Shown one piece after another: positions 7,555 to 17,134 of a stretch of 35,805 nt of DNA (position 1 is its first letter; every line of letters starts with the position of its first letter). Source of the stretch: a virus. The stretch spans positions 1 through 35,805 of IMG/VR virus record IMGVR_UViG_3300022856_000015. One strand, written 5' to 3'. The translations under genes and the position numbers were made by a program. The notes under the pieces are model-generated. The model had not been told where the DNA came from and did not search any database. It saw nothing but the letters and a program-made list of their open reading frames with translations.

Positions 7555-7836
7555 ATGGGAATGTATTTAGAAGAAAGCGAAAATGCAAAAGACATAAACA
7601 AAATGAGTTTAAGTTTTAAAATGCCTAAGTCTACCCCTAAGAAGTCCTCACAACAGACGCTAGTGGACAGAATACTAGAAGTGACAGGACAAGACCCAAA
7701 AAAGTATTACGGGTTCTGGTGCTTAAAATCTAGCGAAAAAGGTTTGCCAATGAATGTTGTATTAGACCTTTGCGACACAGCTGAAAAGTTGCCAGCTAAA
7801 TATTCTAAAGTGGGCTATCTTATTAAAAGATTATAG
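7555..7836 (+). CDS. Hypothetical protein (93 aa), leaderless
   Basis: The start at 7555 (MGMYLEESENAKD) is preferred over an in-frame ATG at 7540, because 7540 lies inside the -10 region. The second half (LVDRILEVTGQDPKKYYGFWCLKSSEKGLPMNVVLDLCDTAEKL) looks like a compact helical domain. No family is recognised, though the position suggests an early accessory role. Confidence 0.65.
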   Translation: MGMYLEESENAKDINKMSLSFKMPKSTPKKSSQQTLVDRILEVTGQDPKKYYGFWCLKSSEKGLPMNVVLDLCDTAEKLPAKYSKVGYLIKRL

Positions 7837-7867
7837 TGTATACTTTAGGAAGAACTTTAACATAAAT

Positions 7868-8030
7868 ATAATGTGTAGAAGCAGGGGTAGACAGGGGTTC
7901 GATTCCCCTATGATTAGCGAAATATAATGTGTAGGATATTGTCGAGTGTACATTAAACAATATTTAAAACATTTGATATAGCTGTATTCATTCGTCTAGA
8001 GGTTAGGATACCCCCGCTCCTGCACATTAT
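7868..8030 (+). ncRNA. Inside-out (permuted) tRNA-like element
   Basis: The 3' half of a tRNA precedes its 5' half. The 3' half has variable bases TAGAC (7888-7892), a T-arm (AGGGG, loop TTCGATT, CCCCT; 7893-7909) and acceptor strand ATGATTA (7910-7916). The 5' half has acceptor strand TATTCAT (7985-7991, pairing at 6 of 7 positions), then TC, then a D-arm (GTCT, loop AGAGGTTA, GGAT; 7994-8009). D and T loops keep the conserved tRNA bases (GG and TTCRA). The place of the anticodon stem is taken by a 20-position helix, 7868-7887 with 8011-8030, pairing at 18 of 20. The 68-nt intervening segment has its own hairpin (ATATTGT/ACAATAT). No U33 or clear anticodon is present, so decoding is unlikely without unusual processing. 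Confidence 0.6.
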
Positions 8031-8032
8031 AA

Positions 8033-8240
8033 ATAGTGTGTAGAATTGAGGAGTATCGGACTGTGAGCCGAAAGCTACCTAGAATATACGGTAGCTAGGA
8101 ATAGGGATAACGCACGTTCCCAAAATAAAATAGGTCGCCCTGAATTGACAGGAGTTGGAAAAGGATACGGTTATATTCCCCAACATAAACCTAGAGCCTT
8201 CTTGCAAGTCAAACCTTGCCTTCTCAATCTTGCACATTAT
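8033..8240 (+). ncRNA. Structured RNA closed by a long helix
   Basis: Bases 8033-8053 pair with 8220-8240 at 20 of 21 positions (five G-U pairs, one A-C mismatch). Inside are hairpins AGCTACC/GGTAGCT (8073-8079 with 8090-8096), TCGG/CCGA, GTTGG/CCAAC and a possible CTAGG/CCTAG helix. No ORF of note crosses it. The closing helix strands resemble those of the adjacent tRNA-like element (GCACATTATAAATAG occurs at the 3' edge of both). Large phage RNAs such as GOLLD or ROOL also lie near tRNAs, but no identity is claimed. Confidence 0.5.
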
Positions 8241-8246
8241 AAATAG

Positions 8247-8324
8247 ATTGAGAATTGATGCAGCTAGGTGATTTTAGAAAATTAGGTACTAATCATGCTT
8301 AGCCTAGCGCCACCAGTTCTTAAT
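8247..8324 (+). ncRNA. Third structured RNA element
   Basis: ATTGAGAATTG (8247-8257) pairs fully with CAGTTCTTAAT (8314-8324), counting two G-U pairs. An inner helix GCTAGG (8263-8268) with CCTAGC (8303-8308) and a further TGATT/AATCA helix extend the arm. Its left strand resembles the start of the preceding element's helix (AGAATTGAGG). Confidence 0.4.
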
Positions 8325-8380
8325 CATAGAGAAGTGTTCAAAAGTAGACTATTTTGAGCTGAATGAACCCGTAGAGAATA

Positions 8381-8470
8381 GAGTGATGTATGCACACAAT
8401 TTCGATGTTTGGTAAGCTTTATGCTTCTCATAAACCAGATAATGATTTGTAAAAGGTGTGTATATCACTC
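8381..8470 (+). ncRNA. Fourth structured RNA element
   Basis: GAGTGAT (8381-8387) pairs with ATCACTC (8464-8470) and CACAC (8393-8397) with GTGTG (8456-8460). Inside, GTTTGGT pairs with ACCAGAT and AAGC with GCTT. Between this and the previous element lies a hairpin TCAAAA/TTTTGA (8338-8357). A short hairpin TCTGC/GCAGA (about 8469-8485) may end the RNA locus. Confidence 0.4.
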
Positions 8471-8506
8471 TGCACTTTAGCAGAAGTTTCACACAACTTA
8501 AAACTG

Positions 8507-8515
8507 TGATATAAT
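8507..8515 (+). promoter_or_regulatory. Extended -10 promoter
   Basis: TGATATAAT (TG plus TATAAT at 8510) lies 6 nt before ATG 8522. No DnaA-box-like element is found 36 bp upstream. Confidence 0.6.
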
Positions 8516-8521
8516 ATATAT

Positions 8522-8593
8522 ATGACTAAAGCAGAATCAGTAAAAGAATATTTCACACCGAACTGTTTTTTTACTGGTTTAGTCACCGCATAA
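8522..8593 (+). CDS. Very short leaderless ORF (23 aa)
   Basis: MTKAESVKEYFTPNCFFTGL begins 6 nt after TATAAT and ends just before a strong terminator, so the transcript is only about 100 nt. It could be a micro-peptide gene or a small RNA whose first bases happen to be translatable. Nothing identifies a function. Confidence 0.4.
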   Translation: MTKAESVKEYFTPNCFFTGLVTA

Positions 8594-8596
8594 AAA

Positions 8597-8622
8597 GTCG
8601 CACAGCAATGTGCGTCTTTTTT
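8597..8622 (+). terminator. Rho-independent terminator with GCAA tetraloop
   Basis: CGCACA pairs with TGTGCG across a GCAA (GNRA) loop and is followed by TCTTTTTT. Confidence 0.85.
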
Positions 8623-8891
8623 GCATACAATTTATTTACAACATTCCTTTAAGGCGTTCTGGAATTTTAAACTACGTCTTCTAAATTTTAAAGTTGATTA
8701 AGGTATTTATGAGAAAACAGGGAAAACAAGTTGGCAACTCTTGCCCTGTCGTTTAATAAGTATCGTAATTAACTAGATAGAGAAGCATTAACTTGTGTAA
8801 ACTATTAACAGTAAATAATACATATAAAGAGAGCCAAAGTTTGCCTTACATTAAAAGGTAAAAGTTGCTTTCTATGTCTGTAATATAAAAC
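8623..8891 (+). other. Intergenic stretch without a supported gene
   Basis: This AT-rich segment holds only a 15-codon ORF at 8709 and a long imperfect hairpin at about 8829-8877 (AGAGAGC with GCTTTCT, then TTTGCCTT with AAGGTAAA). The hairpin lacks a T-run. No other structure or gene is evident. Confidence 0.5.
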
Positions 8892-8933
8892 TGTGGATAA
8901 CTAATTAGACAATCAAAACAGATTAGCTATAAT
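8892..8933 (+). promoter_or_regulatory. DnaA-box promoter P6
   Basis: TGTGGATAACT at 8892 lies exactly 36 bp before TATAAT at 8928. ACAGATTAG (8918-8926) abuts the -10 and is shared with the promoters at 13025 and 17221. ATG 8960 follows after a leader of about 20 nt. Confidence 0.7.
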
Positions 8934-8959
8934 ATACACATAGCAGTTAACAAAACATT

Positions 8960-9142
8960 ATGAGAACAATAGATTACGCAGGTATAAGTAGAAACGAAGA
9001 CACCTTAGCTTATCAATTACTTCCCAAGCTAAGACATTTAACTTTAGAAGGTGTTGCAGAAGATGGAAACCTTATTTGGTCAGGACACAAAGACGAAGTT
9101 GAAAAAGTGGAGTTAATAGTTAAAAAATATGAAAATGGATAA
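8960..9142 (+). CDS. Hypothetical protein (60 aa)
   Basis: MRTIDYAGISRNEDTLAYQL begins in the ACATTATG context with no SD. It is a small alpha/beta protein with a charged C terminus and overlaps the next gene by 8 nt (ATGGATAA). It heads a run of closely packed genes to 12971. No family is recognised. Confidence 0.6.
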   Translation: MRTIDYAGISRNEDTLAYQLLPKLRHLTLEGVAEDGNLIWSGHKDEVEKVELIVKKYENG

Positions 9143-9250: not shown

Positions 9251-9796
9251 ATGGAAAATATAAATAATTCAAGTGATGTAGATTCAAGTCGTGTTGTATA
9301 TTCAAGTCGTAATGTATATTCAAGTCGTAATGTAGATTCAAGTCGTAATGTAGATTCAAGTTGTAATGTATATTCAAGTCGTAATGTATATTCAAGTCGT
9401 AATGTAGATTCAAGTCGTAATGTAGATTCAAGTCGTATCGTATATTCAAGTCGTAATGTAGATTCAAGTCGTAATGTAATCTTCTGCTGTGATATAAAAT
9501 GCAAAGAATACTATGCGTTTAATAAGCAAGTTACAACAGATAGGTTATATGAAATTATAAACCTTTGGAACAAACTAAAAGGAGATTTCAAACTAGAACT
9601 AGAAAATAACGAATGGACAGACGAATGGAAAAAATTACCTAACTCTGTATGGCAGGAACTAGCTAAACTACCAGAATGGGATATAAATGTTGTAGAGAAA
9701 ATTATAGGGTTTAAACCTAATATGGAGATTTCTAAAGAAATGACAGTAGCAGAAATATCAGAGAAGTTAGGATATGAAGTAAAAGTAATAAAATAA
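9251..9796 (+). CDS. Hexapeptide-repeat (SSRNV-Y/D) protein
   Basis: Residues about 6-77 are a near-perfect repeat of a six-residue unit, Y/D-S-S-R-N-V, ending in IFCCDIKCKEYYAFNK; residues about 90-181 form a non-repeated domain with several Trp (NNEWTDEWKKLP). The alternating pattern suggests a narrow beta-solenoid with stacked Arg, Asn and Val. Proteins with decayed versions of this repeat followed by a C/FNK segment occur in many phages, with unknown function. It is directly followed by a pentapeptide-repeat gene, so two repeat-built proteins are co-expressed. Confidence 0.75.
   Translation: MENINNSSDVDSSRVVYSSRNVYSSRNVDSSRNVDSSCNVYSSRNVYSSRNVDSSRNVDSSRIVYSSRNVDSSRNVIFCCDIKCKEYYAFNKQVTTDRLYEIINLWNKLKGDFKLELENNEWTDEWKKLPNSVWQELAKLPEWDINVVEKIIGFKPNMEISKEMTVAEISEKLGYEVKVIK
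9268..9480 (+). repeat. 18-bp coding minisatellite
   Basis: About 12 copies of an 18-bp unit (TTCAAGTCGTAATGTAGA, with G or T near its end) start at 9268 and then every 18 bp from 9283 to 9463. The first spacing is 15 bp. Because 18 is a multiple of three, copy number can change without shifting the frame. Confidence 0.95.
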
Positions 9797-9798
9797 TT

Positions 9799-10401
9799 AT
9801 GAAATACACATTAAAAAACAAAGAAATAGAATTAACAGATGATGAAGTAAAAGCAATTGTAAAACAAAACAGTAAACCTGTAGAAGAAAAGAAAGTGGGG
9901 TTAGAAATTAAAAACAGATTTACGGGAAATGTAATATTTACATCAACTAAAACAACATGGGGAGAAGCTGTAGAGGAAGCAAACCTTCGTGAAGCAGACC
10001 TTAGTGAAGCAAACCTTCGTGGAGCAAACCTTCGTGGAGCAAACCTTCGTGAAGCAGACCTTAGTGAAGCAAACCTTCGTGGAGCAAACCTTCGTGGAGC
10101 AAACCTTCGTGAAGCAAACCTTCGTGAAGCAGACCTTAGTGAAGCAAACCTTCGTGAAGCAGACCTTCGTGAAGCAAACCTTCGTGAAGCAGACCTTAGT
10201 GAAGCAAACCTTCGTGAAGCAGACCTTCGTGGAGCAAACCTTCGTGAAGCAGACCTTAGTGAAGCAAACCTTCGTGAAGCAAACCTTCGTGAAGCAGAGT
10301 TAATGAATGCTAAATTCTATGGAAAAGGAGGAACATCAAAACTAACAAAAGAGCAGTTACCAGATTTCTTAAACGCACTTGGTTTTCAAGTGGAGAACTA
10401 A
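9799..10401 (+). CDS. Pentapeptide-repeat protein
   Basis: After a 58-residue N-terminal region, residues about 60-165 are canonical pentapeptide repeats (A-D/N-L-R/S-E/G), such as NLREADLSEA. This family folds into a right-handed square beta-helix; some members (Qnr, MfpA) mimic DNA and bind gyrase. The C terminus (KLTKEQLPDFLNALGF) is a short helix. Target unknown. The central Leu is invariant in the units. Start ATG 9799 lies 2 nt after the previous stop. Confidence 0.9.
   Translation: MKYTLKNKEIELTDDEVKAIVKQNSKPVEEKKVGLEIKNRFTGNVIFTSTKTTWGEAVEEANLREADLSEANLRGANLRGANLREADLSEANLRGANLRGANLREANLREADLSEANLREADLREANLREADLSEANLREADLRGANLREADLSEANLREANLREAELMNAKFYGKGGTSKLTKEQLPDFLNALGFQVEN
9976..10295 (+). 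repeat. 15-bp coding minisatellite
   Basis: About 21 units of GAAGCAAACCTTCGT and close variants (GGAGCA..., GAAGCAGACCTTAGT). Codon choice is almost identical between units, showing recent expansion. All reading frames stay open through it, so the apparent overlapping ORFs are artefacts. Confidence 0.95.
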
Positions 10402-10403
10402 TT

Positions 10404-10769
10404 ATGAAATACAAACAAAACGACATAATAATAGATAAAAACGGAAATACAAGAAAAATATTAGGAATAGTTAGAGATTATTATATTCTTACTCATGAAA
10501 ATTCAGATAAAGTGAGTGAAATGCTTTGGAATCAAGAAGAATTAGACAATTCAGGCTACACACTACAAGAACCAAAATGGACACCAGAAATATATGAAGA
10601 TTATTATTATCCAAATATTGAAGTAAATTCTGTTAGAAGAATTTTCTGGTTTAATTGTGAAATTGATAACAGTAGAAAAGATTTAAACCTAATTTTCCCT
10701 TTTACACCAGAAGGAAAGAAGCAGGCAGAAGCAAGATTATTAGAAGTAGTAGAGTTACTTAAAAAATAA
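10404..10769 (+). CDS. Hypothetical protein (121 aa), duplicated family, copy A
   Basis: Starts MKYKQNDIIIDKNGNTRKI; the second half has QEPKWTPEIYEDYYYP and a C-terminal NLIFPFTPEGKKQAEARL segment. The WxPxxxxxYYY plus F-T-x-E-x-x-A pattern is frequent in small phage proteins of unknown function. A second copy lies at 11849-12208 and the two share nearly identical DNA at the 5' end. It is followed by a 60-aa repeat-rich protein whose start is also duplicated. Confidence 0.65.
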   Translation: MKYKQNDIIIDKNGNTRKILGIVRDYYILTHENSDKVSEMLWNQEELDNSGYTLQEPKWTPEIYEDYYYPNIEVNSVRRIFWFNCEIDNSRKDLNLIFPFTPEGKKQAEARLLEVVELLKK

Positions 10770-10773
10770 ACAT

Positions 10774-10956
10774 ATGACAAAACAAGAACAAAAAGACAAA
10801 GCGTATGCAGAATATAATGCAATAGAAGAACCAGCGTATAAAGAATATCAAGCAATAGAAAAACAAGCGTTTAAAGAATATCAATCAAAATGTAATGAGA
10901 TAGACGAGCTAGATATTAAAATAATTGATGGCAAGAAATATAAGTTAGTGGATTAA
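10774..10956 (+). CDS. Short helical repeat protein (60 aa)
   Basis: MTKQEQKDKAYAEYNAIEEP continues as repeats of an 11-residue unit close to AIEEPAYKEYQ. Such repeats form long helices or coiled coils and are known from phage proteins of variable repeat number. The first 36 codons and upstream bases recur at the start of the gene at 12432. Function unknown. Confidence 0.6.
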   Translation: MTKQEQKDKAYAEYNAIEEPAYKEYQAIEKQAFKEYQSKCNEIDELDIKIIDGKKYKLVD

Positions 10957-11639: not shown

Positions 11640-11845
11640 ACATTAAAACAATACAAGAGAATATAGTAGACCTAGCAATGGAAGAAATGACAGAGGATGG
11701 AATACATCACGATGATTTTCCAGACAGAGAAAGTGAATATGTTGCTGAAATTGTTAAAGACTTATTAGAAATAAATGAAATAGAATTAGATGAGATACCA
11801 CAGTTTAAAGGAACAAGAGATATGCTTGAAAAACTCCAAATATGA
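11636..11845 (+). CDS. Small acidic protein (69 aa)
   Basis: Begins MNIKTIQENIVDLAMEEMTE and is strongly acidic. It overlaps the preceding gene by 4 nt and ends with TGA at 11843. The next frame, a paralogue of the 10404 gene, continues in the same frame directly after this stop. Function unknown. Confidence 0.6.
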   Translation: MNIKTIQENIVDLAMEEMTEDGIHHDDFPDRESEYVAEIVKDLLEINEIELDEIPQFKGTRDMLEKLQI

Positions 11846-11848
11846 AAT

Positions 11849-12208
11849 ATCAAACAAAACGACACAATAATAGATAAAAACGGAAATACAAGAAAAATAT
11901 TAGGAATAGTTAGAGATTATTATATTCTTACTTATGATAATTCAGATGAGGTATGTAGAGAACTTTTGACTCTACTAGAATTAGATTTTTATGGTTTTAC
12001 ACTACAAGAACCAAAATGGACACCAGAAATAAATGAATTGTATTACTATGTAGATATAGAACCTTTAGGTGTATATGAAGAATCTTGGAGTGAGCAGAAA
12101 GAAGATAAAAACAGACTATCCCTCAACCTCATCTTCCCCCATACACCAAAAGGTAAAGAACAAGCACAAGCAAGACTAGAAGAAGTTATTAACTTACTTA
12201 AAAAATAG
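11849..12208 (+). pseudogene. Copy B of the 10404 gene, start codon disrupted
   Basis: The frame matches copy A closely (KQND-IID, GNTRKILGIVRDYYIL, LQEPKWTPEI, NLIFPHTP). The aligned start is displaced: ATG 11842 is in a different frame because of one extra base near codon 3 relative to copy A. In the correct frame the first codon after the upstream TGA is AAT, then ATC. Possibilities are a frameshifted pseudogene, reinitiation after the TGA, or initiation at ATC 11849. The first ATG-like start would be TTG/ATG inside the body near 11966, losing the conserved N terminus. The rest of the frame is intact and shows no decay. Confidence 0.5.
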
Positions 12209-12211
12209 GAT

Positions 12212-12391
12212 ATGAAATGGAATAAAAGACATTGTGAAGATTGTAAAGATTTACCAGAAGGAGATGTTAAAAGAGGACACAACCACAGAATGACTTACGA
12301 CATGTTTATTAGAGATGGGTATGATTCAGGGTTCACAGATGAACAAATGAACTTTTTAGAAAAATGGTTTGGCGATGAGATAAAAAACTAA
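12212..12391 (+). CDS. Small hypothetical protein (59 aa)
   Basis: MKWNKRHCEDCKDLPEGDVK contains a CEDC pair and a C-terminal helix with Trp (FLEKWFGDEIKN). It sits between copy B and the chimeric gene, at the place where copy A's neighbour follows directly, so it appears to be an insertion in the duplicated cassette. No family is recognised. Confidence 0.55.
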   Translation: MKWNKRHCEDCKDLPEGDVKRGHNHRMTYDMFIRDGYDSGFTDEQMNFLEKWFGDEIKN

Positions 12392-12431
12392 TATGTTAGC
12401 AATAAAAATTATTAACTTAAAAAATAAACAT

Positions 12432-12971
12432 ATGACAAAACAAGAACAAAAAGACAAAGCGTATGCAGAATATAATGCAATAGAAGAACCAGCGTATAAA
12501 GAATATCAAGCAAAATGTAATGAGATAGATGAAAAAGAAATTAGTAAAGTGAAATGGAGAGATGGGGTTATCGTCCTTTTTGAAGTATATGATAGTCACA
12601 CAGGAGAGGGTGGTGATGAGGTGTTTGACAGTGAAATATCATTACTACAAAAAGGGATAGTGCTAGGAAGTAGGGTTGTGGGTTGTGATTACGAACTAGA
12701 AGAAAACGATTTTGTAAATGGGCTTTACGAAGAGGGTGTTGATGAAGATGGCGGGTATAACGTGTATGAGTATACGAAAGCAACGCTTGTTGAACCCGAA
12801 TGGCTCGCCACCTCAATCGCACAAGACGTAGCAGAAGAGAGAGAGAGGTTGAGGGGGAAGATAGAGAAGATAAAGACATTAGTACAAAAACAAACAGGCA
12901 GTTTTAAATATGACAGTTGCTATGATGATGTCATCTCTCTATTACCAACTAACACGAAAAGGGAGAAATAA
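12432..12971 (+). CDS. Chimeric protein: duplicated repeat N terminus fused to an unrelated domain
   Basis: The first about 35 residues and the bases just upstream (ACTTAAAAAATAAACATATG) are almost identical to the 10774 gene. From about residue 40 the sequence is new (VKWRDGVIVLFEVYDSHTGE... through a charged C-terminal helix EERERLRGKIEKI), with more GG-rich codons than its neighbours. This suggests recombination that fused the duplicated N terminus to incoming DNA. The start at 12432 is preferred to ATG 12393, whose extra codons are the untranslated tail of the duplicated gene end. Function unknown. Confidence 0.6.
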   Translation: MTKQEQKDKAYAEYNAIEEPAYKEYQAKCNEIDEKEISKVKWRDGVIVLFEVYDSHTGEGGDEVFDSEISLLQKGIVLGSRVVGCDYELEENDFVNGLYEEGVDEDGGYNVYEYTKATLVEPEWLATSIAQDVAEERERLRGKIEKIKTLVQKQTGSFKYDSCYDDVISLLPTNTKREK

Positions 12972-16855: not shown

Positions 16856-17134
16856 ATGGATTACGAATTAGCAGAGGAATTACACAAAACAGGGTTTAAA
16901 CCAAAAAATGTAACAATAGCAGGGTCAATACTTGCTATACAAACAACTTCACTATCAGAACTAATAGATGCTTGTGGAAAAAACTTTCCAAAGTTATCTA
17001 ATGAGTATGGTGAATGGGAATGTGGTGAAATGGAATATTGTTGTGGAGAACATGGTTACAGTTGGGAAACAATAACATTAGGCAAAACTCCCGAAGAAGC
17101 AGTAGCAAAACTATGGTTAGTATTGAATAAATAG
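16856..17134 (+). CDS. Small conserved phage protein, paralogue B (92 aa)
   Basis: Paralogue of the 15695 gene: MDYELAEELHKTGF, LSELIDACGKNF and TPEEAVAKLWLVLN match it. The stop TAG ends on the first base of the tRNA-Thr gene, so the gene and the tRNA share that base. Function unknown. Confidence 0.72.
   Translation: MDYELAEELHKTGFKPKNVTIAGSILAIQTTSLSELIDACGKNFPKLSNEYGEWECGEMEYCCGEHGYSWETITLGKTPEEAVAKLWLVLNK

What the first reader, a model, noticed from the sequence alone, without database searches (positions are those of the whole stretch)
7868..8030. An inside-out tRNA-like element with 3' half before 5' half
T-arm, acceptor strand, 68-nt spacer, acceptor strand and D-arm occur in permuted order. 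D and T loops keep the canonical bases, 6 of 7 acceptor positions pair, and the position of the anticodon stem is a 20-position helix with 18 pairs. Permuted tRNA genes are known from some algae and archaea, where flanking helices are spliced; a phage example would be notable. The absence of U33 and of a clean anticodon suggests a tRNA mimic rather than a decoder, for example a decoy for host tRNA-processing or tRNA-cleaving enzymes.
Basis: partly seen in the sequence, partly recalled or inferred. Interest (0 to 1): 0.88.

Follow-up and report, generated by a model that had tools for sequence, protein, structure and literature searches.

The report
Inside-out tRNA-mimic RNA in a phage
An uncultured bacterial virus carries a small RNA built like a tRNA with its halves in swapped order and held shut by a long stem; it resembles the known bacterial 'Y RNA' tRNA mimics but lacks their usual partner gene (Ro60), so it is a variant of a known kind and probably not a working tRNA.

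Summary
In window 7867-8031 a perfect T-arm, an acceptor strand, a 68-nt linker, the other acceptor strand (6 of 7 pairs) and a tRNA-Glu-type D-arm occur in permuted order. They are closed by a 22-position stem with 20 pairs (fold z -6.2). ARAGORN and Rfam miss it.

Permuted tRNA bodies proved common in phages. A pattern scan of IMG/VR gave 80 held loci, 79 of them with T-side and D-side acceptors pairing around a UUCG cap. I collected 109 unique units; reversed sequence gave none. Most are evidently bacterial Y RNAs (YrlA): 35 of 50 such records encode a TROVE/Ro60 protein, and Rfam YrlA matches the Mycobacterium phage Sparky unit.

The window element has that architecture but differs. Its acceptor is capped by a long hairpin, the anticodon loop is degenerate, Rfam YrlA does not match, and no Ro60 gene exists in its phage or 49 relatives. 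Its basal-stem motif recurs in a second window RNA and in two relatives around unrelated heads (4 hits in 2.4 Mb, 0 in 28.8 Mb shuffled), a Y-RNA-like arrangement.

Best reading: a Y-RNA-like tRNA mimic, partner unknown. Separately, 49 of 109 phage units keep an intact anticodon arm whose positions 27-28 are completed from the D-side.

The parts
7867..7888 (+). basal (closing) stem, 5' strand; carries the motif GTGTAGA
   Evidence: inverted repeat; fold; strict motif search 4 real hits vs 0 in 28.8 Mb shuffled
7893..7909 (+). T-arm (5 bp, loop TTCGATT)
   Evidence: tmRNA T-arm hit 12.7 bits; profile score
7910..7916 (+). acceptor stem, 3' strand
   Evidence: pairs 6/7 with 7985-7991
7917..7984 (+). 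68-nt linker folding into a hairpin that caps and extends the acceptor stem (UUCG tetraloop in most other units)
   Evidence: fold; longest credible linker among 109 units
7985..7991 (+). acceptor stem, 5' strand
7994..8009 (+). D-arm of tRNA-Glu type (GTCT AGAGGTTA GGAT)
   Evidence: compare Glu-type UUCG units
8010..8031 (+). basal stem, 3' strand; includes the degenerate anticodon-loop equivalent GCTCCTG
8033..8240 (+). second RNA domain (D2) with the same basal-stem motif and a different, only faintly tRNA-like head
   Evidence: fold; motif

Best explanation
The element is a small structured RNA that mimics the elbow of a tRNA: a Y-RNA-like RNA. A long basal stem made by its 5' and 3' ends is the handle, which a protein probably binds. 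The head is a circularly permuted tRNA-Glu body (T-arm, acceptor stem closed by a hairpin, D-arm). Because the acceptor is capped and the anticodon loop is degenerate, it probably does not decode. It would instead present the D-loop/T-loop elbow to proteins that recognise tRNA. In known YrlA these include DusA, TruB and PNPase; a tRNA-cleaving nuclease is the other candidate, with the RNA as decoy. A second RNA in the window and two RNAs in related phages share the handle but carry other heads. Shown: anatomy, non-randomness, the shared handle, and the existence of a large phage class with the same permuted head, mostly linked to Ro60. Inferred: transcription, protein partner and function. It works like YrlA; I do not file it as a YrlA member.
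For: Anatomy and statistics. Same permuted head in 109 unique phage units, 0 in reversed sequence; 79 of 80 UUCG-capped hits pair 6-7/7 although pairing was not part of the search pattern; strong covariation over 95 units (98.7% of cells paired, score 0.846 vs 0.205 shuffled, 86). Ro60/TROVE gene in 35 of 50 records with such units, against 0 of 50 in the window's clade. Rfam YrlA hit on the Sparky unit, 36.6 bits, E 1.2e-6, next to a Ro-like gene. YrlA described as a basal Rsr-binding stem plus a tRNA-like D/T/acceptor domain, substrate of DusA and TruB, binding PNPase (PMC8394870). Shared handle with different heads: motif GKGYAGA/CYTGCMC in window D1, D2, G008 and G012 only. A relative in the same terminase clade (G016) has two unambiguous permuted tRNA-likes, linkers of 7 nt and UUCG, 7/7 acceptor pairs.
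Against: No Ro60 gene in this phage or 49 relatives; the host is unknown and could supply one. Rfam YrlA does not match the window even at E 5 (5), and my covariance model of the short-linker class sees only the T-arm, because of the 68-nt linker. The conserved internal loop of Ro60-linked units (3' CUUGAUC/CUUGUUCC) is not seen in D1's stem. D1's profile score lies at the 6th percentile of members. No expression data.
Confidence: 0.6

Rival explanations
1. It is a permuted tRNA gene whose halves are joined at the basal stem and whose acceptor is opened by RNase P, giving a working tRNA, as in red algae and some archaea.
For: D1 fits the layout of units split in the anticodon loop (D-arm, 26, 27-31, loop, basal stem). 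In other phage units 49 of 109 have an intact anticodon arm (74), and positions 27 and 28 taken from the D-side make Watson-Crick pairs with 43 and 42 in 41/49 each, both in 39/49, against 10.3 expected after shuffling, max 21 (81).
Against: No U33 and no consistent anticodon in D1. No bulge-helix-bulge is visible in the stem. Bacteria have no tRNA splicing endonuclease (general knowledge); RtcB is present in only 3 of 50 phage records with such units (83). The 27/28 result shows a continuous anticodon stem, not that the backbone is joined.
Confidence: 0.1
2. It is a decaying fragment: a rearranged tRNA-Glu pseudogene caught between inverted repeats, with no function of its own.
For: One acceptor mismatch, C.A at 31/39, degenerate anticodon loop; found only in this phage and a near-identical contig.
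Against: A perfect T-arm and D-arm and a 20-pair stem are kept together. The handle recurs in a neighbouring RNA and two other phages. Permuted units with the same topology are maintained in many phages.
Confidence: 0.15
3. The stem-loops of 7860-8480 are RNA-processing or stability elements (RNase III or RNase P sites) of a long transcript, and the tRNA likeness is only a processing tag.
For: Four consecutive long-stem domains between two genes and before a terminator-like site; T-arm plus acceptor is the minimal RNase P substrate (general knowledge).
Against: Does not need a D-arm, which is canonical here; does not explain why the shared handle carries unrelated heads.
Confidence: 0.1
4. It is a relic of a two-piece (permuted) tmRNA.
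For: Same topology: P2 strand, T-arm, acceptor, linker, acceptor, D, P2 strand (topology from general knowledge; element).
Against: Canonical 4-bp D-stem and tRNA-Glu D-loop; no tag reading frame seen; no tmRNA or permuted tmRNA match in the window beyond the 18-nt T-arm.
Confidence: 0.03

Closest known systems
YrlA / bacterial Y RNA (Rfam RF02553; Salmonella YrlA structure PDB 6CU1 as cited in PMC8394870)
   Same: Basal stem from 5' and 3' ends; head in the order T-arm, capped acceptor, D-arm; tandem RNAs sharing a handle, only some tRNA-like.
   Different: 68-nt hairpin cap instead of a short loop; the Ro60-type internal loop is not recognisable; no Ro60 gene in the phage or its relatives; no Rfam match.
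Ro60-linked permuted tRNA-like RNAs of phages (e.g. Mycobacterium phage Sparky 28848-29009)
   Same: Permuted T/acceptor/D body on a closing stem.
   Different: UUCG cap, conserved GGYGUAG / CUUGAUC internal loop, Ro60 gene present; 49 of the 109 units of the wider set keep an anticodon arm.
Ro60-less permuted tRNA-likes (Cronobacter phage GAP32 310070-310330; G016 in the window's own terminase clade)
   Same: Permuted body, no Ro60 gene; G016 is a relative of the window phage.
   Different: Closing stem followed by ACAGCAA, not GUGUAGA; short caps.
Circularly permuted tRNA genes of red/green algae and archaea
   Same: 3' half encoded before 5' half with a linker between acceptor strands.
   Different: Those are spliced at BHB motifs and decode; D1 lacks a clean anticodon and a visible BHB.
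Permuted two-piece tmRNA (RF04321)
   Same: Order of T-arm, acceptor, linker, acceptor, D-side on a long stem.
   Different: No reading frame; canonical D-stem; no match in the window.

Membership tests
YrlA / bacterial Y RNA | tRNA-like head in permuted order (T-arm, capped acceptor, D-arm) | tested here: met
   the cap is unusual (68 nt)
YrlA / bacterial Y RNA | long basal stem from 5' and 3' ends | tested here: met
   20 of 22 positions paired, z -6.2
YrlA / bacterial Y RNA | Ro60-binding motif in the basal stem | tested here: inconclusive
   5' GUGUAGA resembles GGYGUAGA of Ro60-linked units, but the 3' CUUGAUC/CUUGUUCC part is replaced by CYUGCAC, which pairs through
YrlA / bacterial Y RNA | Ro60/Rsr (TROVE) gene linked to the RNA | tested here: not met
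   0 of 50 records of the window and its relatives; the host was not testable
YrlA / bacterial Y RNA | matches Rfam YrlA model RF02553 | tested here: not met
   no match up to E 5 in 7600-9000; the Sparky unit does match, below gathering
YrlA / bacterial Y RNA | binds Rsr, is modified by DusA/TruB, recruits PNPase | not testable with these tools
   described for YrlA in PMC8394870
Functional permuted tRNA gene | intact anticodon arm or a loop with U33 and R37 after joining | tested here: not met
   loop equivalent GCTCCTG
Functional permuted tRNA gene | complete acceptor stem | tested here: inconclusive
   6 of 7 pairs, no encoded CCA
Functional permuted tRNA gene | joined product, CCA, aminoacylation | not testable with these tools
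   needs RNA from infected cells
Permuted two-piece tmRNA | tmRNA model match and tag reading frame | tested here: not met
   only an 18-nt T-arm match to RF00023, 12.7 bits

The most novel reading that the evidence does not exclude
Phages hold a large class of complete tRNAs, many with anticodon arms, circularly permuted in the anticodon stem between positions 28 and 29 or in the anticodon loop. Part of the class has no Ro60 partner, including the window element's clade and jumbo phages such as GAP32. On this reading the RNAs are not only Y-RNA mimics but tRNA precursors or a reserve form resistant to tRNA-cleaving defences, and the window element is a degenerate, anticodon-less descendant used as a decoy.
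Probability: 0.15. Interest if true: 0.9.

Novelty: new variant of a known kind. Interest (0 to 1): 0.5.

Why it matters
tRNA finders and Rfam miss these RNAs, so phage genomes are probably under-annotated for tRNA mimics. A tRNA mimic in phages without Ro60 raises a testable question: which protein binds the handle, and is the head a decoy for tRNA-cleaving defences. The anticodon-bearing units with the 27/28 signature make it directly testable whether some phage Y RNAs are, or come from, permuted tRNA genes.

Tried and rejected
Host identification: the terminase found one contig in cellular genomes, in a Methylococcaceae MAG bin, possibly misbinned; not used. INPHARED blastn of the region: no match. 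Group I/II intron, RNase P, tmRNA, GOLLD/ROOL: no Rfam match. attP origin of the tRNA halves: no integrase gene seen near the element among the proteins scanned, and both halves are present in permuted order; dropped. Promoter reading of the repeated TATAATGTGTAG: the repeat is part of the stem, and the motif is not enriched in the window. Integron attC-like or transposon terminal repeats: conserved A.C mismatches argue for a folded single strand; no attC core seen. RtcB partner: 3 of 50 records. Cellular genomes: the UUCG pattern was absent from 299 genomes of the phylum of the Methylococcaceae MAG (79). Covariance model with short linkers: does not span D1's linker. A looser stem motif (UAGUG/CAUUA) is only weakly enriched (10 vs about 2 expected) and is not relied on. 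The library searches turned up no paper on phage permuted tRNA genes; the primary YrlA paper is not held, so what it reports on phages is known to me only from memory.

Full report
What is there. Window 7867-8031 lies in a 1.1-kb stretch (7837-8959) without ORFs of 60 aa or more and reads, 5' to 3': basal stem strand 7867-7888, T-arm 7893-7909, acceptor 3' strand 7910-7916, 68-nt linker, acceptor 5' strand 7985-7991, D-arm 7994-8009, basal stem strand 8010-8031. Six of seven acceptor positions pair. The basal stem has 20 pairs in 22 positions; both misfits are A.C. The MFE fold keeps the basal stem and the T-arm and extends the acceptor into a hairpin made by the linker; z is -6.2. ARAGORN and Rfam see only a normal tRNA-Thr at 17134. 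Rejoined in tRNA order, ARAGORN recognises a tRNA body in 123 of 374 junctions, but with shifting anticodons.

Chance. A T-arm, a pairing acceptor and a D-arm in permuted order occur by chance in about 0.5% of shuffled windows (30 occurrences in 6595) and not at all in 2.3 Mb of reversed real sequence. The flanking 20-pair stem comes on top of that.

Homologues of the element. The window is a whole IMG/VR record. Only one other contig carries the region, identical over 701 bp. Diverged relatives found through the terminase and an exonuclease lack it as far as they were held. Covariation in the element itself therefore cannot be tested.

A wider class. Searching 1.45 Mb of the terminase clade for permuted T/acceptor/D found the window element and two unambiguous cases in relative G016: 'CTTGGTTCGAGTCCAAG TGGGGGC acagtac GCCCCCA TAGCCTAACAGGTAAAGGC' and 'GTTGGTTCGAGTCCAAC CTCTGCC ttcg GGCAGAG TAGCTCAGTTGGTAGAGC'. 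A degenerate pattern built on the second (T-arm, 10 N, TTCG, 7 N, D-arm start) hit 94 stretches in IMG/VR. Of the 80 held, 79 pair 6 or 7 of 7 acceptor positions, although pairing was not in the pattern; about 1% would be expected by chance. With other linkers I collected 109 unique units; linkers are mostly TTCG, up to about 50 nt, and the window's 68 is the longest credible one. Over 95 units 98.7% of cells pair, with a covariation score of 0.846 against 0.205 for shuffles. The acceptor part of that figure is inflated because these units were kept for acceptor pairing.

What the class is. Cultured phages carry such units unannotated: Mycobacterium phage Sparky, Gordonia and Microbacterium phages, Cronobacter phage GAP32 and related jumbo phages. 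In Sparky the unit lies between a tRNA cluster and a 'Ro-like RNA binding protein' gene. A TROVE/Ro60 gene occurs in 35 of 50 records with UUCG units. Rfam YrlA matches the Sparky unit below its gathering score (36.6 vs 69 bits, E 1.2e-6). Bacterial Y RNA (YrlA) is described as a basal stem that holds Rsr plus a tRNA-like domain of D, T and acceptor arms, modified by DusA and TruB and bound by PNPase (PMC8394870). The Ro60-linked units are therefore very probably Y RNAs, a known kind. From memory, Chen et al. 2014 reported Y RNAs near Ro60 in bacteria and phages; that paper is not held.

Where the window element stands. It shares the architecture but not all defining features: no Ro60 gene in the window phage or 49 relatives, no YrlA match, a long cap, and a basal stem whose conserved part is GUGUAGA/CYUGCAC instead of the GGYGUAG/CUUGAUC-type internal loop of Ro60-linked units. 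That handle motif, required to pair outside and inside, occurs exactly four times in 2.40 Mb: twice in the window (D1 7873/8019, D2 8038/8229), once in G008 (L016 13918) and once in G012 (L026 15263). It occurs 0 times in 28.8 Mb of shuffled sequence. The four heads differ and only D1 is clearly tRNA-like. A constant handle with variable heads is how Y RNAs are organised. I therefore conclude that D1 works like a Y RNA, with an unidentified partner, and do not file it as a YrlA member.

Function. The capped acceptor, the missing U33 and the degenerate loop speak against decoding. A tRNA elbow on a protein-binding handle fits tRNA mimicry.

A separate surprise. Of the 109 units, 49 have an intact anticodon arm directly upstream of the T-arm (23 anticodons; 1-5 hits at shifted offsets). 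In these, nucleotides 27 and 28 taken from the D-side complete the anticodon stem with Watson-Crick pairs in 41/49 each (both in 39/49; shuffled mean 10.3, max 21), whereas position 29 onwards comes from the T-side (45/49); mean pairing peaks at exactly two D-side nucleotides. So these phage RNAs hold a complete tRNA with the break between 28 and 29. This shows a continuous anticodon stem, not that the backbone is joined. RtcB is rare in these phages (3 of 50). Records without Ro60 use different flanks, often a closing stem followed by ACAGCAA.

Verdict. Observation confirmed; interpretation partly supported; new variant of a known kind. The main open points are expression, the protein partner, and whether any of these units is processed to a tRNA.

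Noticed in passing
window 8033-8240: Second long-stem RNA (D2) with the same basal motif; a 4-bp hairpin followed at once by a 7-bp hairpin (AGCTACC/GGTAGCT) could be a decayed permuted T-arm/acceptor.
   Followed up: partly
window 8246-8330 and 8380-8471: Two more long-stem hairpins (about 12-18 bp) in the same intergenic region.
   Followed up: no
window 8488-8620: Strong sigma-70-like promoter (TTCACA-16-TATAAT, 11/12, with TG) followed about 85 nt later by an intrinsic-terminator-like hairpin at 8599-8614: a candidate ~95-nt small RNA.
   Followed up: no
L016 16284-16330 (phage G008): Type I hammerhead-ribozyme core (CGCGA CTGATGA GAGTTTAAAACTT GAAA CAGAAATG TA TCGCG) inside a long-stem domain; the only strict match in about 1 Mb of the clade. 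No Rfam hammerhead match up to E 5.
   Followed up: partly
L016 16397-16551 (phage G008): tRNA-like element in normal order with the acceptor stem extended by a long helix and a large insertion in the anticodon loop; missed by ARAGORN.
   Followed up: partly
L101 8330-8840, minus strand (phage G016): Array of modules, each a short closing helix followed by (U)ACAGCAA; two hold permuted tRNA bodies. The same motif occurs in Ro60-less phages such as GAP32, often with CUGUUA after the 3' strand (possible ACAG/CUGU pseudoknot).
   Followed up: partly
held IMG/VR loci L136-L229: Phage permuted tRNA units with intact anticodon arms whose positions 27-28 are supplied by the D-side (junction 28/29).
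   Followed up: yes
L073 3583-3915: A phage of the terminase clade encodes a tmRNA, tag VNTQKSDMVASPFMSLLSRDTVLA (ARAGORN).
   Followed up: no
L044 2376-2536: tRNA-Leu-like element with a ~22-bp extended acceptor stem and a large insert.
   Followed up: no
window 10400-10855 and 11838-12513: Internal gene duplication (about 76% identity over ~370 bp) with a 99-bp stretch 100% identical.
   Followed up: no
window 9251-9796 and 9799-10401: Two adjacent repeat proteins, one of SSRNVD repeats, one pentapeptide-repeat-like (ADLSEANLRGANLREA).
   Followed up: no
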